Source of the DNA: Antonospora locustae
Taxonomy: Eukaryota > Microsporidia
Direction of reading: 5' to 3'
Assembly: GCA_007674295.1 (NCBI GenBank)
Contig: CM017450.1
Location: 124,001-188,000 of the forward strand
DNA length: 64,000 nucleotides
The translations under genes were made by a program, and so were the position numbers. The notes under the pieces were generated by a model, which had not been told where the DNA came from, did not search any database, and worked only from the letters and a program-made list of their open reading frames with translations. Within the stretch, counting starts at the first letter, position 1, and each line of letters starts with the position of its first letter. Shown here piece by piece: positions 21,485 through 46,197 of this stretch.

Positions 21485-21497
21485 AATACACTTTTTA

Positions 21498-21516
21498 TTT
21501 AGGGTTAGGGTTAAGG
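21498..21516. repeat. Telomere-like TTAGGG stretch
   Basis: TTTAGGGTTAGGGTTAAGG, 14 bases after the DNA ligase stop, with a second GAGGGTTAG at 21531-21539. Two exact TTAGGG units by eye. It sits at the left border of the gene-free A+T-rich region. Confidence 0.6.
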
Positions 21517-22074
21517 AAGAATGTTGAGTTGAGGGTTAGATGTCTCTTCCTAGCTATTTCTTATTTTTGTGTAATGCGATCTCCCTTTATAAATAAACAG
21601 CTTTTATTGATTTTTCAATAATTATTTATTGGTTTTAATATAAAAATCATTTTTGAAAAATCAATATAATTAATATAAAAATTTTACTTTTCATAAAGAG
21701 TTATCTTTGTAATTTTCTCTCATTAAGTAGAACCTTTTAATAGTTCAGTGTAAAACCTGTGCTTATTTTTTGTGACAATAGCGAACAATTACGTATGAAA
21801 TTTGTAGAAATCGATAGAATACATATCTGTTGATTTTTTTTGAAATAACTGTTTATTAAATTTTAATATTAGGAAAGCTTTATAAAGCATCTCACTGCTT
21901 AATGTGCGTTCAAGCTTGCGGGTATGTTAGTTAAATTATCGATGTAATATTTAAATAAAATATATTTTTATTTAATATGGAATAAAGCTTTATCATTCCT
22001 TTATTTTTGTAGCCGTTTGTAATAATTTTAAATTAATTCGAAGAAACATTTAGGTTACTTTAATTTATATTAAA

Positions 22075-22155
22075 AAATATTTTAGTATTGTTTTATTATA
22101 TACGAAAATTCTGTTTTAAAATTATTTAATACAATAAAACAATACTAAAATATTT
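22075..22155. repeat. 23-bp palindromic pair
   Basis: AAATATTTTAGTATTGTTTT at 22075 continues to 22097, and its perfect reverse complement occupies 22133-22155, with a 35-bp A+T-rich spacer. A strong hairpin or cruciform could form. Confidence 0.7.
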
Positions 22156-22275
22156 CGTTTGTTATATAAAAACACAAATATTACTTATATTTGTTATATT
22201 TATTTAAACAGAATATTGACAACTGTCTCTCTTTTTAATTGATAACAAAACAACATAGTGTGTATAGTTTCAAAG

Positions 22276-22361
22276 TTTTTTATATAATAACTCTATACAT
22301 ATCCCTGTTTAGGAAAGCTTTATAAAACACCACATGGTCGCAACTCACCATGTGCAAGTTG
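22276..22361 (+). repeat. 86-bp inverted repeat, left copy
   Basis: Contains CTCTATACATATCCCTGTTT, then AGGAAAGCTTTATAAAACAC, then CACATGGTCGCA. The reverse complement recurs at 23038-23123, with the first about 65 bases identical and a few differences at the inner end. A shorter relative of AGGAAAGCTTTATAAA is at 21871-21886. Confidence 0.8.
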
Positions 22362-23037
22362 TACATAGTTTTAGGAGATTACTACATGGTAGCCACTAGA
22401 GCATTGCTGTTTGAGCAAGAATGCCCGTCTAATCTGGCTATTACTACAAATTATGTAGCAGATCAGCTGCATTCTCTAAGATAACATTTAAACAATAAAT
22501 TACAATAGTTAATAAATTAGTTTAATATATTATATTAATAAATTACTTGTTCTCTTATAAAAGGAAACATAGCAATAAAGACCCCAACAGGCGAATATGG
22601 TGGTAAGAGTCACGTATCTTCACATTATCATTATAGAACAAGAATTAATTTTACACAAAATTACAAACTAGACACCTATGTGAATTAAAATGCATTGTAA
22701 ATGAAATGGTGGGTTGAAACATCCCAGGATATTTTGTATTATATTCCCTAATGTAGGAATTTGTTTATAAATACTTTACCTAAATTAACGAATTATTTTA
22801 ATAATAAATAACATTTAATATAAAGTTAATGTCAGTACATTATAAAAACAATTAATTTATAGTTGAAATAATTTAATAATTTAGGTAAATATCCCTCTTG
22901 CTTTAACTGTAATCAATAACTTGTTGTTTTATATAAAAATCTATATAGAGCTTAAAATGTTTGTTCTTTATAATATTAGTATTATTTGTAGATTAGTTAA
23001 TACAATATAAATGTGCTCGATATTTGTGAACACAATG

Positions 23038-23123
23038 CAACTTGTATATGGTGGGCTGCGACCATGTGGTGTTTTATAAAGCTTTCCTAAACAGGGATAT
23101 GTATAGAGTTATTATATAAAAAA
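23038..23123 (-). repeat. 86-bp inverted repeat, right copy
   Basis: Reverse-oriented partner of 22276-22361; the pair encloses about 676 bases of A+T-rich DNA without a gene. The pair could be the ends of a small inverted-repeat element or an inverted duplicate. Confidence 0.8.
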
Positions 23124-24008
23124 TTATTTAAATATAATGTTTCATATTATTCATATAATTTATTACAAATGACAAGGTGTATTGTTTAACTTTTTTTTTT
23201 TCAAGTTACTGGGGTTTAACAAAAAAACATTTTTCATTTATTACAAAACATAGTCATAACAAAATAATGTTAATTAAGATCTAAATAGAAATCAATGTAT
23301 ATTTAAGGCATTTAATGTATAAATCATGTTTTATTTATAAAACCTTTTTGTTAATGAAATTAATATATTTTAGATTTAAAGTAATAAATGTAAATTACGT
23401 TGTTGCTATAATAGTCAATTTTTTAATTTATAAATTAGTAAAATTACCTTTATAGATTTTTTATTATACAATTTTTATTTCTAATAAGCCTTATTTAACT
23501 TTCAAAAAGAACCTTTCAAAAATTTATACATATTGTTTTTATAAAAGTTTTATTAAAATTCCAAGTTAAACTTTCTTGATGCATCTAGGCCGGTTTCAAT
23601 ACATCATCTAACCAATAAACTTCAATTTTCAGTATGTTGTTTATATTCAATTTGTAAAAAAAACAGGTGTTTTTATAAAATATTCGTACATAATTATTTA
23701 ACTTTATTAAGTGTATAACAATTATCTATCAAGAAAAAAATACAAGTTTATGAAATATAATGGAAAATTGGTCTTTTAACAGTATTTATCTATAACATAA
23801 TAAGTATCAGATAAAGATTAGAATCAGAGGACACAATAAAGCCTATATTATAAAGTGATCTTTATATGTATAAACGACTGAAAATAAATATGATGTACAG
23901 AAAGTTGTAAAAGTTAAACCAGAAAAATTTATTTATAAAGGCCTTTCTTGTTATATTTAAACTTGGAACAATCTGTTAGAGACCTTTTTAGATATAATGT
24001 TCAATAAA

Positions 24009-24210
24009 TTACAACACGTAATCATGCTTGTAATAGTTCTTCACAATGTTGTAGTCTTGATGGTATGCTTCCACATATCTTGAAATTTCACTCACCTTCT
24101 CGTACATCTTGTAGTACGGAGTCATCACACCATTCCATGTCATCACATAAATTACACTTACTTTCACAAGTATATTTCTTCAACTCAACAGCTAGAGACT
24201 TGTTAAAAGT
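24009..24210 (-). pseudogene. Degenerate C-terminal tail of an R4/Dong-like non-LTR retrotransposon protein
   Basis: Minus-strand reading gives SLAVELKKYTCES, then after a frame change VIYVMTWNGVMTPYYKMYEK and on to KHDYVL before a stop. This parallels the tails inside the inverted-repeat arms (SLAAKLNK, LYVMTQNGVTTLYHKKYLEE). In intact R2/R4-type elements this segment follows the restriction-like endonuclease core. Frameshifted and short, so dead. Confidence 0.65.
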
Positions 24211-25635
24211 TGAACAGTAGTACTATACATTTTTAATATATTTATCTGTAACGAAAATGTGAACGTTTACAAAAGATTTATTTTTAACCAAAAAATAAAA
24301 GTTTTATATATTACTAGTTATAGAGATATGTTAACAAACTTTAAATTAAACATCATTGATAATCGAAATAGAATAATAAGATTGTAATATAATGTATAAC
24401 ATAAGTTAATATATTTAATATATATGTTATTTTCAAATCATTTTTATGAACTACATAAGTTATACGATTTTTTATTCTGTTAGTATTTTTTTATAAAGTT
24501 CTACAATCAAATTTGATTAAATATTAATTGATCATAATTATTTTTAATAGCTACATTTTTGTATTATTTTAATGTTCTATTGTTAAACATAACTAATATG
24601 TTTTACTTAATTGTACTTATTATGATTTTATAAATTAAACATAAACAAAAGTATATTAACGTGTTTGTAATATTTTAAATATTAATTTTGTAGATGAATA
24701 AAATGTACTATGAGTAGAAACAATTATATATTAATAACTTTAATTTAAAGTGAAATGTAAGTTGTTAGTTTAATATTTTTAATAATGGTTAGTCAGATTT
24801 AAGATAATAACATAGGTGTCAATTGCAAGAAAACAAATTATTATGACATTTTAAAGATTAATATTGATAATAAGAAAGTAAAACATAACCTATTAAGAAC
24901 TTGTACCACTTATATGGAAGTATATTTAAACATATTTTATTTATTTTTAAACTCATTACTTAAAAGAAAAAGCTCATCTATTTTAGAACATTTAAAAATC
25001 TTTCTAGTGATATTTTTTTGTAAATTATTAAATTATACTAAAAATGTAATACAATTCCATTCTGAACCTAAATAATATCCGATACATAAATAATAAATGT
25101 ATATTAAATATAATATTAAGTAGTTCAATCTATTGTCACGTTAACAAAGATTATTTTAATTCAAAGCTAATTTTATATACAATAAGATAATTTTATTAAT
25201 TGTAAAAATATTTTTATCTATATATAAACATTTTATATATTATAATTAAAAAAATGTTCATTGAAACAATATTATAAATGTAAATTGCGCATTGTATTAA
25301 ACGTGTGTTATACAAAATAAAAGTATAATAAATATTAAGGAAATTGTGGTTAAAACATTTTAAGAATAATAGTAAAAAAAATTATAAATATTTTTAGGCT
25401 TTAAATAATAATTGTATTAAAACATTCAATGATTTTAGTTGTTGTATTTTATTTATGAAACCAACTTTTTCTGCACATCATTCTTTTTAATGTCAATACT
25501 GCTAAATAAAAATATATAATAATGAAAAAAAATAATAAACAGGAAATTTAATGTATAGCTTGAAATTAATATTTTAATAGTTATTTATTACAATATCATC
25601 AAAAATCATAATAAAAATATAGATATATGTTTATA

Positions 25636-26104
25636 AAATACATATTTCTATACCTAATGCTTGAAGTGAAATAGATTGTTAAAGGCCATTCCAACATCAG
25701 ACCAATAAACTCTACCATATTAATATTCAGATCCACCAAGCACAGTCTTTCTTAGCTCGCAATCATGTTTGCAACAGTTCTCCTTAATGCAACAGTGTGA
25801 ACGTTAGTCTCCATGTTCTTTGGAATTTCAATCTCCTCGAGATACTTTTTGTGGTATAGAGTCGTAACACCATTCTGCGTCATCACATAGAGTGTCACGC
25901 ATGCCTTGAATCCGTGGTTTTGTTTAGTTTTGCAGCAAGAGACTCATACTTGCGAATATTCGCAATCTTGATCTCTTGCAATATCTCCACAAAAGTGATT
26001 CTCATTCCTGCAATAGTCACTTCATTCTTACTTTTATTATAAACCACAATATCAGGCTTATTATGGCCAAACACTGGTCTGTTTGATATGTATGCTTGGC
26101 ATTA
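25636..26104 (-). pseudogene. 5'-truncated non-LTR retrotransposon tail, copy 1 (outer, left arm)
   Basis: Minus-strand translation gives RPVFGHNKPDIVVYNKSKNE, VTIAGMRITFVEILQEI, KIANIRKYESLAAKLNK, then a frame change, then CVTLYVMTQNGVTTLYHKKY to a stop after ANMIAS (stop at 25752-25754). It is followed by about 115 bases of 3' UTR to the arm edge. This resembles the restriction-like endonuclease end of R4/Dong-type reverse transcriptases (KPDIVV plus the EVGI motif). The second catalytic acidic residue is lost (IAGMRI), so it is dead. The reverse-transcriptase core is absent, as expected of 5' truncation. Confidence 0.75.
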
Positions 26105-29100
26105 TACACATGCGATAGTTTTCACAATTCTTTCAACTTAAATATAAGTATAGTAATTAAATCATTTGTATAATTAATATAGTAATATATAAGACAAACT
26201 TATTATATACAATAGAATTGCCGTTATTTTTTTAATAGATAATTTAACAGAAAAAAATTATTATCAAGAATTATATAAAACGAAGTTTTATTAAGTATAG
26301 TAAATAATAATTATAATATATAGGTGTTTATAGAAACTTTGAAACTTTTAAAGTATCGAACAGATTTAAAAACCAAATAATTATATATAATTTATTTTAA
26401 ATTTTTGCTGACATCTATGGGGTGCATGAAGTTTCAATTTATATAAAGATTCCTATAAAATTTTGAATTGTATAATGCTAATTTTGAAAATAGAATTAAA
26501 AATAACAACTATCATAAGTAAAAATATAAAAGTCTTTAAAAATATTTAAATAAATTCATTAAAAGACCATAGGATACCATCTCATCAAAACAAACAATTA
26601 TTTTAGATAACATAAATTAATATAGTAATTAATAAGTTTATATCTACATTAAAAATAATAATTAATACAGATATATAGTCTTCCTAAGATATAGCGGCTG
26701 GAATAACAATCATGATATTGATAACTTTTGTTATAATAATCATTTTTTTGAGCATCATTATCTAGTTATAAGTATTACTGACATTTTGGATGACATACTA
26801 AATTACTCTGTTAGCTAAACTTTCGAAATTCTTTGGTTGGAATGTACGCTTTAAAAATTTTTATAATAAAACTGTTTTTCAAAAAATATATATAAAGATT
26901 GACTTTGTGGATAAAACTTACAAATGTGGATTGTTATCCACTTTGATCTAATAATGAAAGTTAGTCATGAAAAAAATATCAGTATAAAAATTATTTAAAA
27001 AAACAAATGATAATTTATAATAAAAGTAAATTCAGGTGAATGATATAATAATAAGGAGTAATAATAAACATATTTGATGTTATTCAAATAGGAAATATGA
27101 AGAAATTTATAACTCTAAAAATTTAATTATAATAACTTGTTAGTTATATATATAAATTCACTGTGAAACAATTACTAGAAGAGAATTGCTAATAACAGAC
27201 TCAATAAGTATCATCACCTTCATGTTTAGTTCTTCATTACTGTGCTACAACCTTGTGTTTATAAACTACATTAACATATTTTTACTAGAATATTATTATT
27301 TAAGTCCCAAAATAAAGTTAAAACAAACTTAAGCTGTAGTAACAATCTTGTATGTTTTGTCTTAAATTACATGATGTGGTGGTTTTTTTTTCAATAAAAT
27401 ATTACCATTAAAAAATAGAACCACTTATTCAGAAACTATTATTTCAATATTATTCAAGTCCAGTGCTGGAAACTGTTTCTAGAAAGTTATTTCACAATAA
27501 CCATTGGATATATTAAAAATGATCTTTCTAAATAAATGTTAAAGATTGTTAAATATTATTTAATAACACAAAGATAATGTAGATAACTTTTTATTTAAAT
27601 ATATTTATTGATAAAGTTAACCTCAATTATGTTTCTTTTAAGAACATTTTTGTTGATTACATTTATTGTATATATTTTAAATTTTACTATATTGAGATTA
27701 TGCAATCATTTTTTGAGATGTCACTGTCTATATAGGAAATTGTCATGGAACAGAAGGTATATATTATGAAAATAATACATTGTTATTTCATAGTAACATA
27801 AAAGTTTAATAATATAAAATTCAAAATTACAAAAGTTATTGTAATAGAAATGCATATAATAATTCATATTCAACATTATATATGAAGGTTTGTCTTGATC
27901 AAATAAGTTATAATTAAAATATGTTATATGTAGTTAAATATTTTGATAGTAACTTTTTAATATATGTATGGTTTATTAAAAATGTCTTTGTACTCATTTT
28001 AGATATACTAATTAAATATTTCTTTTTACATACTTATTAAAAACAATAATAACTGTTGATTGCAATGGAATTTTTATAAAACTTTTGATTTTTATTAATT
28101 GTAATAATGTTTTTTAATTATTGTTATATAAATTGAACCTTAAAATAAGATATTTAAGTTAGTATTAATATATTTTTAAAACTTTTATAATGATAAGTTT
28201 CTATTTAAAATAATCTTTATCTTAGTTATAAATGCATTAAAAGCATGCTATAATTGACAAATGACTTATAATTACATCTCATCTTCTATATTGATAATAT
28301 TTAGATAGGATTCTTAGGTATCTGCAAATCAAAGCGCAGAGGGCACATTTTAAACCAAAACCGCCTAATACGTTTTAGAAATACTTCTTAAATGGAAATA
28401 TGAACACGTTGTTACCTTAAAAATACTATAAATATTTTTATTTATTAAAATTAATTTAAGATATAAAATATTCCTAATATAAATTCAATTTTTTTATTAA
28501 TAGTTTTATTGACAAAGCTCTTATTTAGGATATTTCACAAAAAATATTACAGTAAAATTAAAACTATAGTATACAAAAGTTCTATTTTTTTATGTTTACC
28601 CCAACTTCACCTACATAATATTCACTTTTATTTAATTTATTTTAACAATGATGAATTTTTTAGTCTGTTCATATAAATGAATAATCCTTTTAATGTTTGT
28701 AAATTTTTGCAGTATTTATTACAAAAATTATACATTTATATAGGTTGATTATTAACATATTTATTTTCTGTTAAATGTTAAGCGTCAAACACAACTTTAT
28801 GCTTTTTATTTACAACACATAAATCTTGAAAATACAATGAATTGCTTACTATAATTGTAACATAGACTTATGTGCGTTTTGCTATTTTTATATTATAATC
28901 CTTTGTACGGGTATTTTTTGATAGTCTCTTTATTAAAGGTAATCAGAAGTACAAAAATCTATTATCGAATACATTAATACAGTTTTTCACTTTAATATTT
29001 TTCAAAAATACTATATTTTGGTACATAAAAATTTTTAATTATAAAAACTACAAATTTTCTATATATAACATCTAATTTTTACAATTATAAGAAATTTGTA

Positions 29101-29549
29101 TTTATCAGTTTGAATCTAAACAAATTTCACATACTATTTAATAATGATGAATAACATTTAATTTTGTTAAACTATTCGAGTATATATAATGCATTATAGA
29201 GCATAATTTACAACCTGAATTCCACTACTGGTTTTCTATGTATTAAGTTATATTGAGTTATGAAATAACTAATATTTTTCTATATTTGTTTAAAAATGTT
29301 CTTTTTTTATTATTAAATTTTATAAAATTTCTGTTGTGAAATAAAAGAAATAATGCGAAAATACTATTTTAAATACAAATGTTTATTTATATTTTTTTAT
29401 AAACAGATTTTATACTTTTTTGCTTTTATTTTTTAAGTATCTTTATTTATATTGCTGTCTGATTTATATTTAGTAATCTATTGTTTTATAATAATTATTT
29501 TAATTTGGAAAAAACTAAATCAATACCTTTTATTATAATTTGTAAAGGG

Positions 29550-29930
29550 ATCACTTTTGTGGAGATATTGCAAGAGATCAAGATTGCGAATATTCGCAAG
29601 TATGAGTCTCTTGCTGCAAAACTAAACAAAACCACGGATTCAAGGCATGCGTGACACTCTATGTGATGACGCAGAATGGTGTTACGACTCTATACCACAA
29701 AAAGTATCTCGAGGAGATTGAAATTCCAAAGAACATGGAGACTAACGTTCACACTGTTGCATTAAGGAGAACTGTTGCAAACATGATTGCGAGCTAAGAA
29801 AGACTGTGCTTGGTGGATCTGAATATTAATATGGTAGAGTTTATTGGTCTGATGTTGGAATGGCCTTTAACAATCTATTTCACTTCAAGCATTAGGTATA
29901 GAAATATGTATTTTATAAACATATATTGTT
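29550..29930 (+). pseudogene. 5'-truncated non-LTR retrotransposon tail, copy 2 (inner, left arm)
   Basis: Same 364-base unit as copy 1 in opposite orientation: ITFVEILQEIKIANIRKYES at the 5' break, stop at 29795-29797, 3' end at the inner arm edge. It lacks the upstream KPDIVV part, so its 5' truncation point differs from copy 1. The frame change after TTDSR is shared with the other copies, so it predates duplication of the arms. Confidence 0.75.
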
Positions 29931-32900
29931 TTGACTACTGTGTTGTACACTTTACCTAGTTCACAATTTATACTCATCGATAATCTTTATTTAGTTGAGT
30001 ATTGAAATTATAACTTTTGTTTATATTGTAGCTACTATAATATTTTTCACATATATTGATTTTATTATTTGATATATTTTTGATAATAACTAATATAAGT
30101 ACATTTGTTTGTTAAAAAATATTTTATTTAAAACTTTAATAATAATTATTCTTTGTATTTATATTTTTGTATATAGAATAGTATTGCATTAACTTTAACC
30201 TTATTTTTTATGTAACTGTAATATTTAAAAAACTTGTCACTTTATTTATATCGAGAATGTTATTACTTTTTGTTATTAATTTTTGACAAAGTTAATTGAT
30301 TATGCCTCAATTTTTATAACGAGTTTTGCATTTTACAATAATATGTAAAGTTATTGTCAAAGTTACTAAAATTCAGAATCAAGTAATTCTAGTATGTCTA
30401 ATTTATCATGATATTATAAGTCATAAATAATATTAACTGTTATTTGACTTTTAAACACATATAAATATATAACTAAATACAAAATATGCAATTTTAGTCA
30501 TTATTATATAATTAATTTTTTATACTTTAATCACTTACAACTAAACAAATTATTTTTAAAATTATCTTAATATTTGTCAATGTTCAATAAATAAGGCAAG
30601 GAATTTAAGATTATTGTACATAAATATGACAACAATAATGGCCCTCTTTTCCGTATCAACTGTGAAGGTAGTTCAATAAAGGATTACTAATTGACGCTAT
30701 CCGATATAAGCACACATGAATTTTGGTTATCTAAAGTTTTATTGACGCTATTACTTCTAAAAATATTTATTGTATATTCTTTACGAAGAATAATTGAATT
30801 AAAGAATATATCAAAAAGTAAAGTGCGCTATGCAGACTATAAAGTTTAATCAAATAAAGCTTTAGAATCAAGTTAGACATATGTGATTTACTAATGAAAC
30901 TATCGTCTAAAGAAAATTAACAAATTTATTCAGTATCATTTAATTAATTTCTAAAATAACTAGAACCTACCTACTAATTAATTTATTAGTAAGTATATAA
31001 ATATGTTTTAATCTATAAAATTTCTTCTACATAGTGGTATGAGGTATTTCTAAACATATTTATATAAGTTTATACCTCTCTTCACTATTTTTAATAAATG
31101 TATACCGTATAAAATCACAATTATTTTTATATAATCTCTTCATCTGTATGTTAGTCATACATAGTTAAGCACTAAGACTTTGTTATTAAATATTTCTACA
31201 TATACGTGTTCATTTTATCTAAATACATATGACTTAACGTTCTTTGATAATATTAATAACTTTATTGAAAAATTTTCTTTAAAGAAAATAATACTAAAAT
31301 GCCTTAAAAGTCGATAAGTGAATGTCTTACTTTTTTGCCATCAAAAGATCGTGAATAGTAATGTGGATGTTGTTACAAAAACCTACAGCGGACTACTGTA
31401 TCTTGTCCATCTTTTATGAGCACTTTTGTCATCTTATATTTTAAAATTGTTATAAAAGAAGTAAAAAAATACATACATATATGAATGTTGATAAATAATA
31501 TTTTAAATGTGTATGATATACATTAAATTTTAAATAAGCAAAAAAACAACCGAATTCTCAAATATTCATTAAATTTTTGATAATAGGTTAATATATCATA
31601 ATTACATAATAAATAACACACAATTAACTCTATAACAGTTTAATGTAAAATAACTTAATTATAAAAATATTTAACATACATTTTTCAAAGAAAAATATTA
31701 TGATGTAAAATTGTGATATTATATTATCTATATTTAAATCGTATAAATATAAAATTCAAAAACAATATTATATTCAATATTTATGTAAGTCATTTTACTT
31801 TATTTAAAATGTCCTAAAACTAAAATATCAGATGATTTTTTTAAGTTTTTGAGTATTAATTCTGTTAAACCTATTCACTAAGATAAATAACATAGTATTA
31901 GGTCATAATTTGAAAAGATAATGTATTAAAGAAACATCTTAAGTCTGCGAGAAAACTTGTAATTCAATCCTAAATTGCGACATACTTAAGATGCTAGTCT
32001 AGATGAGAACATTTAAGACCTTTTCTTTTTAACAACATTGTAGTATCAATGACATCGGTATAGCGGCTAATATGTTTGTGCCTGCAGAGATTAGTTCAAA
32101 TGTTCAGCATGGTAGCAATGGAACTATGTTACTAAAATAACTAGATAGATCCCAAATAAGGTATTTTACCTTTTAATAATTTCATCAAGCTTGAATAAAG
32201 GTAAAATGATATTAAGAAACAACAGTTTAGATTTCTATGATGTTTTTAGAATAAATGCATCTTGTTTTAGCCAAGTAGAATGGTTGTTCATTATAGGACT
32301 TTCGAATCCAGTGAAATCTTTGTACTTGTCCGTATGGCACATCCCTAGCAGCTACATGCATGCGCTGAATTATCACATAATCACATCTTCTCTCTAGATA
32401 TCCCCAGAATTTGAAAATGCTAGTAAAATTCTTAAACTACCTTTGAATATATTAATATTAAAAGTTTTTATTATAACGTAAGTACAAAAATATGTAATAA
32501 GTATTTCTAAACTTTTTAATTTTGAAATTTTTATACATTTTTATTTACTTTCAATATATATTGTTAAAAATCTTGAATTTTAAAGTTTTTTTAGTAAAAC
32601 ATTTTAACTATTTAAAATGTTAACTGTCTTTGCTCATAATTTATGTGTTAATTAGCATGAAAATAAAAAATTTAAATAGTACTTTTAAAGTTTAAATACA
32701 GCTGAGTTAATTTTAAAAGTATAAAGTTGAAAGTAGTTATCGTTATACAAAGAGTTATATTTATATTATATTTAGTTTTTTAATATAACAGTTTTATTAA
32801 CAAAATAATTAAACGAAACTAAAAACAAAAACGCTTCTGACAATAGCTGTAGTCAAACACATGTTTACATATTTTAGCTTTTAAGCACAATGTATGTGCT

Positions 32901-32971
32901 TTTTATACTTTTGTAGTAAAAGAAATAATTAAATCAAAAAAGGATTTTATAATAGATTTCATATAATTATT
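29931..32971. other. 3.04-kb core between the inverted arms
   Basis: Single-copy A+T-rich DNA. The part 31920-32400 is less A+T-rich by eye and has a 68-codon plus-strand frame whose first codon is TTG, with no family resemblance on either strand. A few further islands (near 30640 and 31320-31430) show short coding-like stretches interrupted by stops. No intact gene, RNA or tandem array is seen. Confidence 0.6.
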
Positions 32972-33352
32972 AACAATATATGTTTATAAAATACATATTT
33001 CTATACCTAATGCTTGAAGTGAAATAGATTGTTAAAGGCCATTCCAACATCAGACCAATAAACTCTACCATATTAATATTCAGATCCACCAAGCACAGTC
33101 TTTCTTAGCTCGCAATCATGTTTGCAACAGTTCTCCTTAATGCAACAGTGTGAACGTTAGTCTCCATGTTCTTTGGAATTTCAATCTCCTCGAGATACTT
33201 TTTGTGGTATAGAGTCGTAACACCATTCTGCGTCATCACATAGAGTGTCACGCATGCCTTGAATCCGTGGTTTTGTTTAGTTTTGCAGCAAGAGACTCAT
33301 ACTTGCGAATATTCGCAATCTTGATCTCTTGCAATATCTCCACAAAAGTGAT
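32972..33352 (-). pseudogene. 5'-truncated non-LTR retrotransposon tail, copy 3 (inner, right arm)
   Basis: Mirror image of copy 2 with the same 5' break (next to GGGATCAC in the other orientation) and the same 3' end; stop codon at 33105-33107 on the minus strand. Confidence 0.75.
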
Positions 33353-36300
33353 CCCTTTACAAATTATAATAAAAGGTATTGATTTAGTTTTTCCAAATTA
33401 AAATAATTATTATAAAACAATAGATTACTAAATATAAATCAGACAGCAATATAAATAAAGATACTTAAAAAATAAAAGCAAAAAAGTATAAAATCTGTTT
33501 ATAAAAAAATATAAATAAACATTTGTATTTAAAATAGTATTTTCGCATTATTTCTTTTATTTCACAACAGAAATTTTATAAAATTTAATAATAAAAAAAG
33601 AACATTTTTAAACAAATATAGAAAAATATTAGTTATTTCATAACTCAATATAACTTAATACATAGAAAACCAGTAGTGGAATTCAGGTTGTAAATTATGC
33701 TCTATAATGCATTATATATACTCGAATAGTTTAACAAAATTAAATGTTATTCATCATTATTAAATAGTATGTGAAATTTGTTTAGATTCAAACTGATAAA
33801 TACAAATTTCTTATAATTGTAAAAATTAGATGTTATATATAGAAAATTTGTAGTTTTTATAATTAAAAATTTTTATGTACCAAAATATAGTATTTTTGAA
33901 AAATATTAAAGTGAAAAACTGTATTAATGTATTCGATAATAGATTTTTGTACTTCTGATTACCTTTAATAAAGAGACTATCAAAAAATACCCGTACAAAG
34001 GATTATAATATAAAAATAGCAAAACGCACATAAGTCTATGTTACAATTATAGTAAGCAATTCATTGTATTTTCAAGATTTATGTGTTGTAAATAAAAAGC
34101 ATAAAGTTGTGTTTGACGCTTAACATTTAACAGAAAATAAATATGTTAATAATCAACCTATATAAATGTATAATTTTTGTAATAAATACTGCAAAAATTT
34201 ACAAACATTAAAAGGATTATTCATTTATATGAACAGACTAAAAAATTCATCATTGTTAAAATAAATTAAATAAAAGTGAATATTATGTAGGTGAAGTTGG
34301 GGTAAACATAAAAAAATAGAACTTTTGTATACTATAGTTTTAATTTTACTGTAATATTTTTTGTGAAATATCCTAAATAAGAGCTTTGTCAATAAAACTA
34401 TTAATAAAAAAATTGAATTTATATTAGGAATATTTTATATCTTAAATTAATTTTAATAAATAAAAATATTTATAGTATTTTTAAGGTAACAACGTGTTCA
34501 TATTTCCATTTAAGAAGTATTTCTAAAACGTATTAGGCGGTTTTGGTTTAAAATGTGCCCTCTGCGTTTTGATTTGCAGATACCTAAGAATCCTATCTAA
34601 ATATTATCAATATAGAAGATGAGATGTAATTATAAGTCATTTGTCAATTATAGCATGCTTTTAATGCATTTATAACTAAGATAAAGATTATTTTAAATAG
34701 AAACTTATCATTATAAAAGTTTTAAAAATATATTAATACTAACTTAAATATCTTATTTTAAGGTTCAATTTATATAACAATAATTAAAAAACATTATTAC
34801 AATTAATAAAAATCAAAAGTTTTATAAAAATTCCATTGCAATCAACAGTTATTATTGTTTTTAATAAGTATGTAAAAAGAAATATTTAATTAGTATATCT
34901 AAAATGAGTACAAAGACATTTTTAATAAACCATACATATATTAAAAAGTTACTATCAAAATATTTAACTACATATAACATATTTTAATTATAACTTATTT
35001 GATCAAGACAAACCTTCATATATAATGTTGAATATGAATTATTATATGCATTTCTATTACAATAACTTTTGTAATTTTGAATTTTATATTATTAAACTTT
35101 TATGTTACTATGAAATAACAATGTATTATTTTCATAATATATACCTTCTGTTCCATGACAATTTCCTATATAGACAGTGACATCTCAAAAAATGATTGCA
35201 TAATCTCAATATAGTAAAATTTAAAATATATACAATAAATGTAATCAACAAAAATGTTCTTAAAAGAAACATAATTGAGGTTAACTTTATCAATAAATAT
35301 ATTTAAATAAAAAGTTATCTACATTATCTTTGTGTTATTAAATAATATTTAACAATCTTTAACATTTATTTAGAAAGATCATTTTTAATATATCCAATGG
35401 TTATTGTGAAATAACTTTCTAGAAACAGTTTCCAGCACTGGACTTGAATAATATTGAAATAATAGTTTCTGAATAAGTGGTTCTATTTTTTAATGGTAAT
35501 ATTTTATTGAAAAAAAAACCACCACATCATGTAATTTAAGACAAAACATACAAGATTGTTACTACAGCTTAAGTTTGTTTTAACTTTATTTTGGGACTTA
35601 AATAATAATATTCTAGTAAAAATATGTTAATGTAGTTTATAAACACAAGGTTGTAGCACAGTAATGAAGAACTAAAAATGAAGGTGATGATACTTATTGA
35701 GTCTGTTATTAGCAATTCTCTTCTAGTAATTGTTTCACAGTGAATTTATATATATAACTAACAAGTTATTATAATTAAATTTTTAGAGTTATAAATTTCT
35801 TCATATTTCCTATTTGAATAACATCAAATATGTTTATTATTACTCCTTATTATTATATCATTCACCTGAATTTACTTTTATTATAAATTATCATTTGTTT
35901 TTTTAAATAATTTTTATACTGATATTTTTTTCATGACTAACTTTCATTATTAGATCAAAGTGGATAACAATCCACATTTGTAAGTTTTATCCACAAAGTC
36001 AATCTTTATATATATTTTTTGAAAAACAGTTTTATTATAAAAATTTTTAAAGCGTACATTCCAACCAAAGAATTTCGAAAGTTTAGCTAACAGAGTAATT
36101 TAGTATGTCATCCAAAATGTCAGTAATACTTATAACTAGATAATGATGCTCAAAAAAATGATTATTATAACAAAAGTTATCAATATCATGATTGTTATTC
36201 CAGCCGCTATATCTTAGGAAGACTATATATCTGTATTAATTATTATTTTTAATGTAGATATAAACTTATTAATTACTATATTAATTTATGTTATCTAAAA

Positions 36301-36796
36301 TAATTGTTTGTTTTGATGAGATGGTATCCTATGGTCTTTTAATGAATTTATTTAAATATTTTTAAAGACTTTTATATTTTTACTTATGATAGTTGTTATT
36401 TTTAATTCTATTTTCAAAATTAGCATTATACAATTCAAAATTTTATAGGAATCTTTATATAAATTGAAACTTCATGCACCCCATAGATGTCAGCAAAAAT
36501 TTAAAATAAATTATATATAATTATTTGGTTTTTAAATCTGTTCGATACTTTAAAAGTTTCAAAGTTTCTATAAACACCTATATATTATAATTATTATTTA
36601 CTATACTTAATAAAACTTCGTTTTATATAATTCTTGATAATAATTTTTTTCTGTTAAATTATCTATTAAAAAAATAACGGCAATTCTATTGTATATAATA
36701 AGTTTGTCTTATATATTACTATATTAATTATACAAATGATTTAATTACTATACTTATATTTAAGTTGAAAGAATTGTGAAAACTATCGCATGTGTA

Positions 36797-37265
36797 TAAT
36801 GCCAAGCATACATATCAAACAGACCAGTGTTTGGCCATAATAAGCCTGATATTGTGGTTTATAATAAAAGTAAGAATGAAGTGACTATTGCAGGAATGAG
36901 AATCACTTTTGTGGAGATATTGCAAGAGATCAAGATTGCGAATATTCGCAAGTATGAGTCTCTTGCTGCAAAACTAAACAAAACCACGGATTCAAGGCAT
37001 GCGTGACACTCTATGTGATGACGCAGAATGGTGTTACGACTCTATACCACAAAAAGTATCTCGAGGAGATTGAAATTCCAAAGAACATGGAGACTAACGT
37101 TCACACTGTTGCATTAAGGAGAACTGTTGCAAACATGATTGCGAGCTAAGAAAGACTGTGCTTGGTGGATCTGAATATTAATATGGTAGAGTTTATTGGT
37201 CTGATGTTGGAATGGCCTTTAACAATCTATTTCACTTCAAGCATTAGGTATAGAAATATGTATTT
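36797..37265 (+). pseudogene. 5'-truncated non-LTR retrotransposon tail, copy 4 (outer, right arm)
   Basis: Mirror image of copy 1, carrying the longer KPDIVVYNKSKNE part; stop at 37147-37149 on the plus strand. The 3' end coincides with the outer edge of the arm. Confidence 0.75.
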
Positions 37266-40200
37266 ATAAATAAATTGTTAATAATTATACAAAATGAGAT
37301 ACGTTAATAAAAATATGTAAAATATTTATAATAATATATATTTATAAAATTGTAAGTATCATGTTCAAAATTTTAATATTTACAAATAAAATTAAACTTG
37401 TTTAAAAATATATTATCGTTTTATTTTATAACAAATTTCTTAGCGTTAACTATAAATTTATAATTTATTATATAACAATACAAAAATTAATTATAAAAAC
37501 ATGATTATTATTAAATCTATCTATATGTGATAGAATTTAATTTCAATAATGCTTCAAAATATTACTTTGTATTATCTTATGATATTACAATTCTACAACT
37601 TTTATAATAATATTATTTGTTAACGAAAATTAAATAAGATCATAAGCATTTTACGATTGCAGTATAGAACAATATACATATTACATTTTAATTTGTAATC
37701 TTGTACAAGTTGAAAATGCAAATTACTTTCCATGGAAATTACAATGATAAACAAAGTAGCATAGATAATCTAAGTTTAAACGTGAAACAAACATTAACAA
37801 GACGTATAAAATTAGGTAATAAGGCTTAAAGTTAAAAAAAAAATACAGAAGAATATTTTTGTGCATTACATTTCTATCAATGGTAATTGTAGATAAAAGA
37901 CTACTATAAATGTGAATTTAAAGATATTTATGATTTTTTATGCTCTTTTAGAATTAACATAAAGAACTAGATTAGAATGGTCATAAATTGAGAAGTTTTC
38001 TTGTAAACAACCAACGAAAATTTTAATTTTATAATAATTAATATATTTAGAACGGAAGATATTAAATAATTTTATGTGAAATTTATAATTTAATACATTT
38101 TAAAAATAAGTTTTTTGAATCTTGAATTTTTTTTAACTTTAACTATGAAAAATATAAAATACGAGGCATATGTCGAATAGAAAAATGTTTTTATTATATG
38201 TAACTTGACTTATACAGAATAATTTATATAGCCAATACTTACTTTAATAAATTTAAATATAGATTGTACCTAATTATTATATTCTAACACACATTTTAAA
38301 ACTTCGAAATATTTTATCATCTAACATTCATATACATTTAATTAATTTTAGTAAAGATTCATTATAATATAATGCTTTATTTAAATATGATCTTGATTTT
38401 ATTAAAAATAAAGATTTCTAAATCACTATCTAAATTTTGTTTTTATTCTCTTTATTTTATTTATGTTTTTTTGACTTTATTAACAATTTTTTATGTAATA
38501 ACAAACCGCTATAATTAATGGTAATCACCACAAACATTTTAGAAATGATTTTTGAAAGTATTATTTGTTAACATAATGATTAATTTAACGGATGTTGGGT
38601 TATTAAAGGAGAATATATTATTTTATTCCTTTTCAACTTAAATGGATAGGTAAAGTCCATTACATTCATATGGCCTATAACCTTGGTTCTCCGCATATTT
38701 CGTTGATATTAGTTAACAAGAATTAATGAAATTATATTAAAAAATACACTTATTATTATTGTTTATTATTCAAAAAATACTGGTGTAATCGTCTTTTATT
38801 ATTATTAAATTTATAATGATTTTTACTTATCAGTACCACTATCGTATTTTATGCATAATACTGTTAAAATAAGTATTTATACAAAATTGTGTAACAAATT
38901 TACTTTTATTTAAAATTTTATTTAAAACTACACAAAAAGAAAATATTTGGCCAATTTTTTCAATATATTACATCTTATCATTGCACACGAGAACTTTCGT
39001 TCATAGGTGCTACTTGTACTTTGAAAACCAACCATATGCTTAAATGTATTTGTTGTGTGCTTTCAGCACAAAAGACAATTATGTTTATTAACTGTGTTTA
39101 TCTTGTTCCTATAATTTATTTTATTAATAATATACTAACTGTTATAATACCTATTATTGATATTTATAAATTCTATTTAAAGATATTTGCATGTTTATAA
39201 TATTTTAAATATTCTTAAATATAAAGTTATATTAATAAACTTTATTTATTCATGATTTAATATCTTATGTTCGTTACATTTATTTTTTATAACTATTTTG
39301 TTGAAAAATCTAATTTCTTTGTTTATTTATAAATACAACTTATAGATTCTTAGATATACTTTATAATCTCTTATTATCGTATTTTGTAATAAAATATAAT
39401 AATATAAAATCGATATTTATTTTATCTCAACATGTAATGTTATAAATTTATATACATATTTAACATTAAATTTTATTTATATTTCATTAAACCTTCTTGC
39501 TGAGTATGAATATAGCAATAATCTTGTACTAGAAACGGTCTCCCGTTAGCTGTTTGAGTATTGTCTGTAATTACAAAGTACTTTCTGAATAAACCCGATT
39601 GTGTTTGAAATATATATTATTCAATAAAATAAAAATAACACATTTAATTTTAGATTACAAATAAACTCTATAACGTAAAATATAATTTTCATAAATACAG
39701 ATAACTTATATTACAAAATTACTCTATTGACTACAATCATAAAGTATTTAAACCTAAACATTTTATCGTTATCCAAAATCTATCATAACTACTACTATAT
39801 CTTTGTTATTTAATATTTATTTACTTTTAATAAAATTTTTCGTAGGTTTTTTAATTTTATAAAAAGCACTAAAAGAATAAATAACTCATAATTAGGCACC
39901 TAAGGCTAATATTTGATAAGTTTTTATTGCTTATTCAAAAATCAAATGACAATCATCAATATAAGTAAAACTCAATTGTAACAGAGCATAATACTAACGA
40001 TATTTACATAATAAAAATGATATCGCTATGCATTGTCTCCACAAACTGCATTTTCTTTGACATTATTTAGTAACATTTTTTTCTATTTTCAAAATACATG
40101 CATAATTTTTATCTTTTTAATACTATTATTATAAAACATGTATCATTACTAATATTTTAAAGTTACTTTTTATTAATAGACACTTTTAATATTATATAAC

Positions 40201-40639
40201 ATTATAATTAAATGTTTTACTTTTATTTAAATATGTTAGGTAAAAAATACACAAATTAAGTAACAATACATCGTTATAAGCAATTAATCAATAGTTAAAT
40301 GAATGTTTTATTAAATAAATTGTAAAAAGACTATTTACAAGGAAAGAAGAGAACTATTTAAAATCAAAAAAGAATGGATAAGTTAATATGAAAATGATGC
40401 TTATAAAACTTGTTTAACACAAAAACGTAAGGAAAACACATAAGGCTATACAATATGTATAGTATATTGATTATTTCTATATTATCATACACAATTATAT
40501 TTAAGTATGAAAATACTAAAAATTGTTTGTTAAATATTGATCATAATGTTTTTAGGATTATTTATTTAGAAATCTATTTTTGTTTTATTCAAATAGTTAT
40601 TATTAAACAGCCTGTTAGAGACAGTTTTCTGCACTATAA
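37266..40639. other. Gene-free A+T-rich flank, right of the inverted repeat
   Basis: Very A+T-rich sequence with no frame above 60 codons that looks coding and no long repeat recognised by eye. A few G+C-richer islands (for example 38590-38700 and 39490-39560) hold no recognisable content. Confidence 0.55.
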
Positions 40640-40745
40640 TCAATAAACTTTGCACATTTGTACTCAGTTACTTCATTCAACAACATTTTTCAGTTCGCAA
40701 TCATGCCTGCAACAATTCTCCACTCATCCTATAGTCTCAAATCAT
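40640..40745 (-). pseudogene. Short diverged remnant of the retrotransposon tail
   Basis: Minus-strand GTGGAGAATTGTTGCAGGCA continues as ATGATTGCGAACTGA, encoding WRIVAGMIAN then a stop. It parallels the terminal RRTVANMIAS of the arm copies, and the downstream bases also show similarity. Only the last few residues and some 3' UTR remain. Confidence 0.5.
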
Positions 40746-43700
40746 TACCATAATGCTTTTAGGAAGAATGAAATTTTTATATGAAGAATTTTTTTTAAAA
40801 GTTATTAATTTAAAAAAATAATTTATTGAAGAGATGTTTTAATTAAAAATATATGTTTTAGTTAATTCATTATTTATGAAAACTTCTATTTTTATTTGTT
40901 ATATATTATGTACACATTTCACTTAACTAGTAAGTTCTGTTTTTATTATAGGTGCTTATTTATAATTAAAACCAGAACAAGGTTGATAATAAAAAAATAA
41001 ATTATTGGTTATGTGTCATATAATTCTTTATATTTTATTTTTTAATTAATAAAAATTACATAATAGAGTTTCGATCAAATATTGTTTTGTTCAGAATAAT
41101 AGAACACTAATAAGATTTTAATAAGTTTACAATATTTACAATATAATAAAATATTAGATTTACATTTTTTTAGTAAACTTTCAATTTTTACTTTATTGGT
41201 CAAAAAGAGAAAATTACTTTTATAAAATGGATATTTGTTTTTAATAATATAAAAATAAAGCACATTGATAACAATTTAATTGTATGTTGTTTTAAATCCG
41301 TATTGTAATGTAAAATATATTAAATTCAACGAAGATTGAAAATATATGCATATATGTAAAATGTAACAAACAGAGACAAATTTATACATTAATGTCTTTA
41401 AAATTAAAAGATATTTAAGAAAGACCATATATATTTTTATATCATCATGAACTATCTAAATACAGTAGAGGCAGTGATCATCTGGTGAATCTTCTCTATA
41501 TAGAGACGAGCAGAGACTCAAATGTAAAAAAGGTCATGAACTGGAAAAATTATCAGGTTGTCAAGATAGTAAATACCCATGTTAAGAATTAAATATAGTC
41601 GAAAACAATGCCAGTTTTTTGTATTTATAAGAACATTTTACAACAATGCTATTAAGAACATACCGAAGCACAAATATCGTGTCTCTATGGAAGTATACAA
41701 ATTATCTATCAAAGCAGTTAAGTTGTTTGTGTATGCGGAGAAAATCCAACCCTACTTATCTAAAAGATAAACAGTATGTATAGCAGTATCCCTTCTTCAT
41801 TTCATCAAAAAGAATACTTTATGAATAAAATATATATGTGATTTTTTATAATCATCTGTGTTAATTTTAGAAAACATAATGATAATTTATTTGTAAATAG
41901 TGATATATAGACCCGTTGCATTATTGTTTAACAATTTTTTTCATATTTAAGTATGATCGGAATTATAATTAGGAAAATGCCTTTTCGTTATTACAAAGTG
42001 TTTCCCGCACTTTTTAAATAATAACATAAATTTTGTTAAACTGGTTTATCCTAATTTTTTATGTATTATGATACCCTTACATTTGTAATGTTAAAATGAT
42101 ATATGGAATAATACTTATACATGATTTTTAAAATGAAAAGTGATAGAATGATGTTAACAAAAATATGATTTTGAATAATTTATATTTTTAAATAGATCAT
42201 CGTTGTTTAAAACGTAATAGAAGAAAAAATAAAATTCCTATTATATTGAATAATTACTGTTTATTAGTGATGATGCATTTAGTACACCTAGAGATGTGGG
42301 GCGCAGCAGAGATACCGCAGCAGGTGGTGGTGGTGCAATGTCTGCATAACTTCACGCGATCATTCTTTGACAAAAATAAATACTCGATGAATGACAAACT
42401 AAGTACCATTGCAACACGAATACAAAGCACAAGTGATAAGTTTTGCCCAAATTTCCTGAAGTAAAATTTTATAAATAAACGGTTACCATAAAACTGACAT
42501 TTGTTTGGAAAGAGCATTTTGGTTTCAGGATCTCAAACGAAAGTATTATTATTATAAATGGGAATGGCAGCAATAGGTATGGCGGAGAATGCTTCTGTAT
42601 TGACAAAACTGTAAAAGCATTAAATGCATATTGTGAATTTGTAAAAGATTTGGATGTTTCCTATTTTCGCAAACCATTGTAACTAACCATTTTATGTAAT
42701 TCTTAGAAATAGGTTGATAATTGAAAATGAAGAGAATGTGAACCAATTTTTCTGAGTGTAATAAAATAAGATATATATAACGAAGGGTTAACGAAAACCG
42801 AGATGAATACAACGTGTAGTACAATAGTTATAAGATTGATTAAAATAATGAGTGGTATACACCCTTTTAATTTTACACTCTCACAAATATAGGGTTGTCT
42901 TGATCCTTTGCTATCACGCATTGAGGTACAAATTATGTGGTATGATACAAAGATGGATGATCCACAACATTCAGAAGACGATTACAAAAGATTTAATTCT
43001 ACACACTGCAAATTGTTTATTCAGATGAGTATGTTCAGGGAAATGTAGTCTGTGTTTAAAATAAGTCACGATTTGTTGATTGCGCTATCATATAAGTTTT
43101 GGTTAACGATATTACAGAACCTTTTAATCTGAAACCTGCTAAGGCTCCATTTCCAATCAATAAAATAAATTGAAACATGTCATATTCGCATAAATGATTT
43201 CTTTCTATGCGTCCTTAAAACATAAAATACAAAGAACGAATGGGACACATTATTTAATATTTGAGAGTTTTAGTGATTATTGAACCTGATTCAACTTAAC
43301 CGCCACTAAGAATAAAATGTTATCTGCTTTCAAATCATCGTTACCTACCTGTAAAATATTTTTACAAAAATTTATTCTTTTCGGAATTGAAGCACAAACA
43401 ATACTTTTTTTATTGGGTTGGACACTAGAAGGACTGTTTTGTCGCACAACTCAGTTGAATATAATTTTGAACGTTTATCAAAGCAATAAACCCTCATCTT
43501 TCTTTTCCCTGTACAAAACACTCATATCTTTTTTAATAAAGGGCCTGGGAGAGAAAATAAAGGAGACTTGTCTCTGACCATTAGAACATACAAAAAAATC
43601 ACAGAGTGAGGAATCAGATCAATTCTCACAAGCATTATTCTGTAATAACAATATCGATTTGAGAAATGCATATCGTGTCACAATGTAGGGTAACTTATTG

Positions 43701-45228
43701 ACTTGTAATTGTAACACAATAATATGAAATATTACACATATTAAGATTCACCAATGTGTATCGTAAAAACCAACACTAGTGAAATTCTTTGTCTTTAAAA
43801 TTTTTTTTACGCTTCTTCACCTTTGGCTGTGAAATTTGCCTTGGAATGGATAATACGCCTCACATTTTGAAAGGGCTGCATGTGTTAAGTTCAGCTTGTT
43901 ACTAATTAGGTCTGATGCTTGAAAATAAACGCCTGCCATATTGCTTATCGCTCGATCTTCTTAAAGCATCACATGGCTGTAGCCTATCTGCTCGTTGCGT
44001 TCGAGCTCGCGGAATTTATACGAGCATAATTGTGCAGAACGTCTCATACGCATCGAATATTTTTCTTTATAACTAAATTGTAGTCACATAACACAATTGG
44101 AATAAATTATGCAGAACCGGGATGAATTTGAAAAGAATACAATAAAAGATGTCCATGAAAAAATAAATTCTCTTTTTCTTTTACACATCTTTCACATTAA
44201 GTCTTACAACGTCCTCAATAGAATACACAGTTCAAATAAAATAAAAATACGGTTTTGAAATCGCCACACCCTAAAAGAAGTTTCGTTTATGCATTTGTGC
44301 ACGAACTTTGTGGCGCTTCGAGGGCCATTTTAAATTCTACTCTACGCTCTTCACTGAAGGGCTTGGTTGTGGTTGAAGAAGTTCCAGCCCGTTATGTAGG
44401 TCTTCAACCCACTTTATGCTTTGCACTTTCAGTCGCCAGGTCGAAAGCTTAGTAACAAACAGTCAATAAATAATGTTTGTAAGCGAATGTTTCTGCACCC
44501 ATTGAAATACGTCGTCACAGAAACTCTTTGTACTTCCATTTACAAATCAACCAGCATTCAGCTGCAGGCGAAGAAGGATTTAGAACCCACCGTTCTCTAT
44601 GAAGTCGTAACACAAAAAAACCTGAAATTAAACAAAAATAAATTTTTGAAGAACGGATGGAAGTCTTGGAGTATTTGAACGCCAGAAGCGTCCGAATAAA
44701 AGGTGTGTAGCAGAGTCGTATCATGTTGAGAAGTGGTATTTCCATCGATTTTCCTCACAATTTGCTTAAAAGCTTTCGGTAACCGCTAAACTTGAACATC
44801 AAAGAGTCTTTTTTCTTAAGAAGCAGAACCTACACAGATGTTTAAATAATGCATAAAAGCATAAAACAATTTTAAATTTCTCGCATAAAATGAAGCTTCT
44901 TGTTCTAGATGTACGTATATTCGTTACGCATGAATTCCTTGTAATTAGTATCACTTTATGCATAAAATCAGCGTAAATAAAACATAGCTAAGGGTAATTT
45001 ACTCACGCGCAGCAAATTTCTTACAAAAGCATCTTAAGTGAAGCTCGTTTTGGACCTCAGAGATTTGTGTTGTCCGTTCGGACTCCACACGCATAAAAAC
45101 GTCTGTGGTCAATTTTATGCAACACCGAGAAAACGAATATGTTCCATCTGTGAGCGAATGCATCCACGAAGCGGGGTACCGAAAAGCCACTTGACTCTGT
45201 TGGTTGAACATCGAGGTGATAAGGCCCC
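40746..45228. other. Right part of the gene-poor region, composition rising to normal
   Basis: A+T-rich to about 43.8 kb, then less so. Coding-like but broken stretches occur at 41450-41770 (two plus-strand frames joined by stops: NLLYIETSRDSNVKKVMNW, then a 63-codon frame beginning MLRIKYSRKQC), 42246-42464 (72 codons) and 42560-42680 (GECFCIDKTVKALNAYCEF). I recognise no family in them; they may be gene relics. Frames at 44255-44678 begin with non-ATG codons or are short. No RNA gene seen. Confidence 0.45.
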
Positions 45229-46086: not shown

Positions 46087-46197
46087 GAAAATGGGCTGAA
46101 TTCAACTGAAACATCTTTATTCATGCGTTTAGAAAGCAGTGAAATAAAGATGTTTTCGACTTTTATTGAGCACTTGCACATCCCAAGAAACGGGCGC

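What the first reader, a model, noticed from the sequence alone, without database searches (positions are those of the whole stretch)
21485..45228. Candidate regional centromere: 23.7 kb gene-free A+T-rich DNA with a large inverted repeat at its centre
Seen: no intact gene over 23.7 kb in an otherwise gene-dense window, extreme A+T content, and two inverted arms of about 4.3 kb around a 3.04-kb single-copy core; the palindrome centre (about 31450) lies within 2 kb of the middle of the gene-free region. Known: regional centromeres of Candida tropicalis, Komagataella and Schizosaccharomyces have a core flanked by inverted repeats of similar kilobase size and are free of genes. Inference: this is a centromere of similar architecture in a microsporidian. 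I know of no described microsporidian centromere with this layout, but cannot check the literature. An internal heterochromatic or subtelomeric block is an alternative.
Basis: partly seen in the sequence, partly recalled or inferred. Interest (0 to 1): 0.92.

Follow-up and report, generated by a model that had tools for sequence, protein, structure and literature searches.

The report
Likely centromere of a locust parasite
A 24-kilobase gene-free, A+T-rich stretch, one of which lies on nearly every chromosome of this microsporidian parasite, is very probably the centromere that pulls the chromosome apart at cell division; the large mirror-image repeat inside this one looks like a local extra, not the rule.

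Summary
Window 21485-45228 holds no gene, has about 22% GC against 49% outside, and contains 4.3-kb inverted arms (99.9% identical) around a 3.04-kb core. The genome (3,170,203 bp, 17 contigs; almost certainly Antonospora locustae CLX) let me test the centromere idea. GC sampling found one such block on each of 16 contigs and no clear second; contig C9 has no clear block. A second block read whole (C8:69996-93784) has nearly the same gene-free length (23,789 against 23,744 bp) but no large inverted repeat, and a search found no long copy of the C4 arm on other contigs. So the inverted repeat is not the defining feature. GC3 of an intact flanking gene falls to 22%, as in centromeric GC troughs of yeasts. 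The genome matches CENP-C, Ndc80, Argonaute and a divergent H3 that is a CENP-A candidate. Relics of one LINE-like element gather in and beside the blocks. Best reading: regional centromeres, 0.8; CENP-A binding is untested. The low-GC blocks are not new: I recall that the A. locustae genome paper reports them on 16 of 17 chromosomes, and a 2026 paper likens them to centromeres.

The parts
21485..45228 (.). gene-free block, 23,744 bp: proposed centromere of contig C4 (C4:145485-169228)
   Evidence: no ATG ORF of 100 aa or more; longest open frame of 22001-42000 as in resampled sequence
18601..42400 (.). A+T-rich zone (limits of 500-bp windows below 28% GC; not every window between is below)
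   Evidence: GC per kb
25630..29930 (+). left arm of the large inverted repeat
   Evidence: 4301 aligned bp, 99.9% identical to right arm
32972..37270 (-). right arm of the large inverted repeat
   Evidence: search with the left arm gave no long copy on other contigs
29931..32971 (.). 3,041-bp single-copy core between the arms, GC about 22%
25615..26110 (-). element copy at outer end of left arm (LINE-like 3' end, broken frame)
29550..29930 (+). element copy at inner end of left arm
32956..33352 (-). element copy at inner end of right arm
36791..37290 (+). element copy at outer end of right arm
23915..24166 (-). older relic of the same element
27376..27559 (+). old relic inside left arm (its mirror copy is 35342-35525, minus strand)
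39513..39605 (+). old relic of the element tail
40543..40719 (-). old relic of the element tail
18342..19188 (.). two short relics of the element tail on opposite strands (18342-18406 minus, 19124-19188 plus), in the left transition zone
   Evidence: (I6)
19619..21484 (+). flanking intact gene: ATP-dependent DNA ligase, GC3 only 22%
   Evidence: Pfam; GC3
45229..46086 (+). flanking gene on the other side: WD40-repeat-like protein (weak, below Pfam cut-offs), GC3 69%

Best explanation
The block is the regional centromere of chromosome C4. Each chromosome (16 of 17 here) keeps one gene-free domain, about 24 kb in the two read whole. I infer that CENP-A nucleosomes occupy part of it, that CENP-C binds them and that the Ndc80 complex links them to microtubules; the site would be inherited through chromatin, because the two blocks read share no long sequence. 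The domain became A+T-rich because nothing in it codes and because recombination, and with it GC-biased repair, is low there; the bias leaks into flanking genes. Dead copies of one LINE-like element collect inside and beside it. The C4 inverted repeat arose from a recent inverted duplication (or continuing gene conversion) of a 4.3-kb piece bounded by element copies; it is optional. Shown: anatomy, one-per-contig distribution at the sampling used, GC3 slope on one side, relics, matches to the kinetochore genes. Inferred: CENP-A occupancy, low recombination, origin and role of the repeat.
For: One block per contig: 167 tiles of 300-400 bp plus longer stretches; blocks at C1 153k, C2 43-65k, C3 65k, C4 142-166k (window), C5 109k, C6 87k, C7 131k, C8 70-94k, C10 43k, C11 65k, C12 65k, C13 47-54k, C14 65k, C15 21k, C16 65k, C17 14-24k (tiles at 25% GC or less); the 116 tiles above 25% outside C9 average 44.5% GC. 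Two blocks read whole have gene-free lengths of 23,744 and 23,789 bp. GC3 on the left falls from 52-67% (8.3-15.5 kb) to 47, 39, 47, 26 and 22% toward the block. CENP-C cupin at C4:203336 over cut-off (none of 14 control genomes over it); Ndc80 at C11:91661, E 1e-39; three H3-like genes, two 64-66% and one, C14:98028, 43% identical to human H3. The element at C8:72884-73135 has copies at C1:145255 (99%), C5:109999 (99%) and C13:44093 (92%), all within 8 kb of a low-GC tile.
Against: No CENP-A, Hi-C or functional data. C9 (171 kb) has no compact ultra-low block; 31 of its 32 tiles lie between 25 and 54% and one at 22%. Tiles are up to 22 kb apart: a second block shorter than that could be missed, and the two low tiles of C2 (22 kb apart) are counted as one block without proof that they join. 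C13 has a further tile of 28% at 65k, with 34% between it and the block, and C5 one of 28% at 87k. On the right of C4 the gene next to the block has GC3 69%, and the genes left of the C17 block fall only from 63-71% to 52-53%, so the trough in coding DNA is not general. The CENP-A call rests on divergence from human H3 only; the wider alignment of that gene contains a TAG (none in the histone-fold match), and the protein could not be fetched. Only 2 of 16 blocks were read whole.
Confidence: 0.8

Rival explanations
1. The blocks are A+T-rich heterochromatic or regulatory domains that are not centromeres; the genome paper, as I recall its abstract, linked the ultra-low GC regions to regulation of host defence in the fat body.
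For: No kinetochore data exist. An Argonaute match is present, so RNA-guided heterochromatin is possible. Element relics are common in ordinary heterochromatin (general knowledge).
Against: One and no clear second per contig at the sampling used, similar length in the two read whole and lack of genes fit a centromere and are hard to explain for regulatory or plain heterochromatic blocks, which need not be one per chromosome.
Confidence: 0.13
2. The inverted repeat itself makes the centromere, as in the homogenised inverted-repeat centromeres of Candida tropicalis.
For: Arms of 4.3 kb around a 3.04-kb core match the C. tropicalis sizes given in PMC7292649 (passages: 3-4 kb repeats, about 3 kb core).
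Against: The C8 block has no large inverted repeat. A search with the arm found no long copy off C4, so nothing suggests homogenisation between chromosomes; that search can miss repeats (one search did not list its own query's place).
Confidence: 0.04
3. The inverted repeat on C4 is an assembly artefact (fold-back read) inside an otherwise real block.
For: Arms are 99.9% identical and no reads could be examined.
Against: The arms differ at four sites and are separated by a 3-kb single-copy core, and both ends carry element copies of two lengths, which a simple fold-back would not give.
Confidence: 0.08
4. Chromosomes are holocentric, as proposed for microsporidia in general, and the blocks are incidental.
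For: Angst et al. 2025 (PMC12449221, passages) found no centromeric regions by GC or repeats in nine other microsporidian genomes and raised this.
Against: One localised block on 16 of 17 contigs and retained matches to a divergent H3 and CENP-C.
Confidence: 0.03

Closest known systems
Low-GC regions of Antonospora locustae (Chen et al. 2020, Microb Genom; abstract recalled, paper not held) and their mention in PMC13174016 (first part of Discussion read)
   Same: Almost certainly the same blocks: I recall about 25 kb, about 20% GC, 16 of 17 chromosomes. [quoted passage not shown] locustae' a local reduction in GC is seen.
   Different: As I recall, the 2020 abstract does not call them centromeres.
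Candidate regional centromeres of Microsporidia sp. MB (PMC13174016, passages and first part of Discussion)
   Same: Gene-poor, associated with LINE-type elements, most chromosomes with one.
   Different: There GC-rich (mean 47.6%), 30-82 kb, full of repeats and highly CpG-methylated; here GC-poor, mostly single-copy, relics only, methylation unknown.
Unique or A+T-rich regional centromeres of Candida albicans, Clavispora lusitaniae and relatives (PMC7292649, PMC12711049, passages)
   Same: Gene-free, no sequence shared between chromosomes, some but not all with inverted repeats (C. albicans CEN4, CEN5, CENR).
   Different: Those are 4-18 kb (passage whose subject I take to be C. albicans) and CENP-A-mapped; here about 24 kb and unmapped, in an early-diverging lineage.
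Candida tropicalis and Komagataella inverted-repeat centromeres
   Same: Size of arms and core on C4 (C. tropicalis figures).
   Different: In C. tropicalis all seven centromeres have the repeat, homogenised; here it is absent from C8.
Centromeric GC troughs of yeasts (Lynch et al. 2010; seen only as a reference-list entry)
   Same: Base composition of flanking coding DNA shifts near the block.
   Different: Here clear on one side of C4, moderate on the right of C8, slight on the left of C17.

Membership tests
Fungal regional centromere | one localised block per chromosome | tested here: met
   16 of 17 contigs with one block; C9 unclear; a second block under 22 kb could be missed
Fungal regional centromere | kilobase-scale gene-free domain with distinct base composition | tested here: met
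   C4 23,744 bp and C8 23,789 bp without a gene, about 20-22% GC; 2 of 16 blocks read whole
Fungal regional centromere | occupied by CENP-A / inner kinetochore | not testable with these tools
   needs ChIP-seq or CUT&RUN
Fungal regional centromere | genome encodes CENP-C and Ndc80 | tested here: met
   both over Pfam cut-offs
Fungal regional centromere | genome encodes CENP-A | tested here: inconclusive
   a divergent H3 (43% to human H3) at C14:98028, sequence not fetched, a TAG in the wider alignment
Fungal regional centromere | centromeres cluster in Hi-C | not testable with these tools
   no contact data
Homogenised inverted-repeat centromere (C. tropicalis type) | inverted repeat around a core at every centromere | tested here: not met
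   C8 block lacks one
Homogenised inverted-repeat centromere (C. tropicalis type) | arms shared between chromosomes | tested here: not met
   arm query (3878 bp) hits C4 and only a 117-bp relic on C8
Point centromere (S. cerevisiae type) | short conserved motif at each centromere | tested here: inconclusive
   a shared 20-mer was seen, but it belongs to the element tail and is also found outside blocks; no motif scan of all blocks was possible
Holocentric chromosome | no localised centromere | tested here: inconclusive
   localised blocks argue against it, but occupancy is unmeasured

The most novel reading that the evidence does not exclude
A. locustae has size-constrained regional centromeres: one gene-free domain of about 24 kb per chromosome, unique in sequence, that traps dead 3' ends of a LINE-like element and may be silenced through the retained Argonaute; the C4 inverted repeat would add a hairpin RNA source. 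C9 would carry a differently built centromere. This would end the view that microsporidian centromeres cannot be seen in sequence, at least for this lineage.
Probability: 0.35. Interest if true: 0.8.

Novelty: new member of a known kind. Interest (0 to 1): 0.62.

Why it matters
Centromeres have not been experimentally located in any microsporidian in the papers that I saw in part (PMC12449221, PMC10158259 and PMC13174016; passages, and the first part of the Discussion of the last); holocentric, subtelomeric or sequence-invisible epigenetic centromeres have been proposed. A compact parasite genome with one recognisable block on nearly every chromosome makes the question directly testable with one antibody or one Hi-C library, and gives an early-branching relative of fungi for comparing how centromeres evolve.

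Tried and rejected
Searched for a large inverted repeat in the C8 block: none. Searched both blocks for known RNAs: none in Rfam at E 0.5 or better; the window's two tRNAs lie outside the block. A 117-bp, 73% similarity between the C4 and C8 blocks first looked like a conserved centromere motif; its 59.9 bits only just exceed the best of 40 resamples (53.6), and it proved to be a relic of the element tail. Pfam gave no family above cut-off for the four element pieces (best E 0.049), and a protein search with two of its pieces found nothing; that it is a LINE-like (perhaps R4-type) C-terminus is my reading of the sequence from memory. The single RVT_1 match (C2:200289, 849-aa frame) may be telomerase; not checked. 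Ten ORFs of the 42-45 kb transition zone gave no Pfam family above cut-off. Nineteen low-GC tiles from 14 other contigs compared with both blocks showed no long shared sequence (best 45.5 bits). No relative of the organism could be compared: the tool states that none is held.
Full report
What the window is. The window is C4:124001-188000 of a genome of 3,170,203 bases in 17 contigs. The size and contig number equal what I recall for Antonospora locustae CLX (Chen et al. 2020, Microbial Genomics; not held). The DNA ligase beside the block has its best named matches among microsporidia, after three unnamed proteins and one filed as contamination of a louse genome. Most of the flanking genes that gave a Pfam match are ordinary housekeeping or regulatory genes.

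The interval 21485-45228 has no ORF of 100 aa with an ATG start. Window 22001-42000 has 21.8% GC, against 48.6% for 1-16000 plus 45001-64000. Its longest open frame, 101 aa, is what resampled sequence gives (66-125 aa in 40 resamples). The inverted repeat has 4301 aligned bases at 99.9% identity around a 3041-bp core.

One block per chromosome. Because only a limited amount of the genome could be read, I sampled it: 167 tiles of 300-400 bp plus 10-kb stretches and the two longer C8 stretches, with gaps of at most about 22 kb. The C4 block is in the window. Fifteen further contigs (all but C9) have one place or run of tiles at 15-25% GC and no clear second. The 116 tiles above 25% outside C9 average 44.5% GC; three are at 28-31% (C5 87k, C13 43k and 65k), all within about 22 kb of a low tile. 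Two low tiles on C2 lie 22 kb apart and are counted as one block without proof. In 400,000 random placements of 16 blocks on contigs by length, none put all 16 on different contigs. C9 is the exception: 32 tiles give 22-54%, mostly 25-41%, without a compact block. A block shorter than the sampling gap could have been missed anywhere.

A second block in full. C8:69001-102000 was read whole. Open frames of at least 330 aa (ending at 69995; its start may lie before the stretch read) and 321 aa (93785-94750) bound a gene-free interval of 23,789 bp, close to the 23,744 bp of C4. It has no large inverted repeat: the best self-match is an 80-bp palindrome. A search with 3878 bp of the C4 arm found four places on C4 and a 117-bp relic on C8; this search tool can miss repeats, for a later query from C8 did not list its own place. 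The inverted repeat is therefore not shared by the two blocks read, and nothing suggests that it is homogenised between chromosomes. The other 14 blocks are not known in this respect.

Base composition leaks into genes. On the left GC3 falls from 52-67% in the genes at 8.3-15.5 kb through 47, 39, 47 and 26% to 22% in the intact DNA ligase gene next to the block (the ORFs at 17462 and 17926 are short and unconfirmed as genes). An insertion of foreign A+T-rich DNA would not do this; a regional effect on mutation or repair would. On C8 the right-hand ORFs have 44, 50, 42 and then 64%. Against a general rule: on the right of C4 non-coding DNA of 33% GC (42001-45000) meets a gene with GC3 69%, and left of the C17 block GC3 only goes from 63-71% to 52-53%.

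Relics of one element. The four repeats that bracket the arms belong to a family of short 3' fragments of a protein-coding element. A profile made of 8 copies (7 from blocks, so biased toward them) gave 20 rows in 339.8 kb of window and fetched DNA and none in the reversed control: 9 rows in the C4 block, 5 rows (4 places) in the C8 block, 2 in the left transition of C4, 1 weak in a C17 block tile, 3 elsewhere (C9:7057, C5:2215, C15:4431). A sequence-only model of the tail, built from 11 copies, gave 14 matches in the window, all between 18346 and 42527, though it did not list the two outer copies of the arms, one of them a seed, and 7 in 22 other stretches: 4 in the C8 block and the same 3 elsewhere. 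Over the whole genome, a 20-letter pattern from the tail had 14 matches and none for the pattern read backwards; 9 lie in the two blocks read or within 8 kb of a low-GC tile (C1, C4 three times, C5, C8 twice, C13:44182, C15:27691) and 5 elsewhere (C4:129531, C9, C10, C13:110386, C15:4490). A copy on C8 at 72884-73135 has 99% identical copies at C1:145255 and C5:109999 and a 92% copy at C13:44093, each within 8 kb of a low-GC tile; weaker ones at C7:115724 and C6:102880 lie about 15 kb from the low tile, and one on C9 has no block to compare; a 64-bp match of another part of the query at C4:28455 lies outside. At protein level the outer copies' best other relatives, 50% identical, lie at C3:133410 and C9:7097, not at blocks. 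A separate stretch at C8:91574-92000 is 100% identical to C3:82689-83115, about 17 kb from the C3 low-GC tile. So the family is concentrated at blocks but not confined to them, with a bias of the probes toward blocks. The only reverse-transcriptase (RVT_1) match in the genome is C2:200289; I did not otherwise search for an intact copy of the element.

Kinetochore and silencing genes. CENP-C cupin: C4:203336-203575, E 1.3e-7, over the cut-off, which none of the 14 control genomes reaches. Ndc80: C11:91661, E 1e-39. Histone family: 9 matches, 6 over the cut-off. Against human H3: C1:323303 (64%), C1:167422 (66%, with a weak histone match below the cut-off on the opposite strand about 260 bp away, perhaps H4) and C14:98028 (43%). 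The last is the CENP-A candidate; its wider alignment contains one TAG, its histone-fold match none, and its sequence could not be fetched. Argonaute: C14:106790, E 2e-84.

How it most likely works. See the statement: a regional centromere marked by chromatin, not by a shared sequence. The role of the inverted repeat is open; as in C. albicans, where three centromeres carry inverted repeats that are not homogenised (PMC7292649 passages), it can be a by-product of repair. The outer element copy of the left arm has about 38% GC, against 19% for the arm interior, so it looks younger than its surroundings.

What is known. I recall from the abstract of Chen et al. 2020 an 'ultra-low GC region' of about 25 kb on 16 of 17 chromosomes, linked there to host-defence regulation; my 16 of 17 agrees. 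PMC13174016 (passages and the first part of the Discussion) proposes regional centromeres in Microsporidia MB and notes that similar regions in A. locustae are GC-poor. A search for papers with 'locustae' and 'centromer' gave only that paper (open-access library only). PMC12449221 (passages) found no centromeric regions in nine other genomes; PMC10158259 (passages) could not place them in Encephalitozoon and inferred CENP-A. So the blocks themselves are not new; the tests above and the C4 repeat are additions that I did not see in the listings or in the passages read.

Noticed in passing
G000 contig C9 (171,047 bp); loci L013, L044, L095-L102, L151-L154, L173, L175-L192: Odd chromosome: GC mostly 25-41% in the tiles, except 51-54% at 43-59 kb, and no compact ultra-low block. 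Not explained; could be a differently built centromere or a different kind of chromosome.
   Followed up: partly
C8:91574-92000 (L012:9574-10000) and C3:82689-83115: 427 bp of 100% identity between two chromosomes; on C8 it is an island of about 50% GC inside the A+T-rich block; no Rfam family.
   Followed up: partly
window 50289-50559: 22.6 copies of a 12-bp tandem repeat inside an ORF (50030-50848) with no Pfam family.
   Followed up: no
window 10254-12295: Genes matching transketolase-type and E1 dehydrogenase domains lie next to each other in convergent orientation (I read them as pyruvate dehydrogenase E1 beta and alpha), in a parasite of a group with reduced mitochondria.
   Followed up: no
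G000 C1:167422, C1:323303, C14:98028: Two canonical-like and one divergent histone H3 gene; a weak further histone match lies about 260 bp from the first on the opposite strand.
   Followed up: partly
G000 C14:106790-107665: Strong Argonaute (Piwi domain) match in an 807-aa frame.
   Followed up: no
protein search, P0004: A DNA ligase fragment, 87% identical over 72% of the query, is filed under the chicken louse Menopon gallinae as unverified contamination: apparently a close microsporidian relative in louse data.
   Followed up: no
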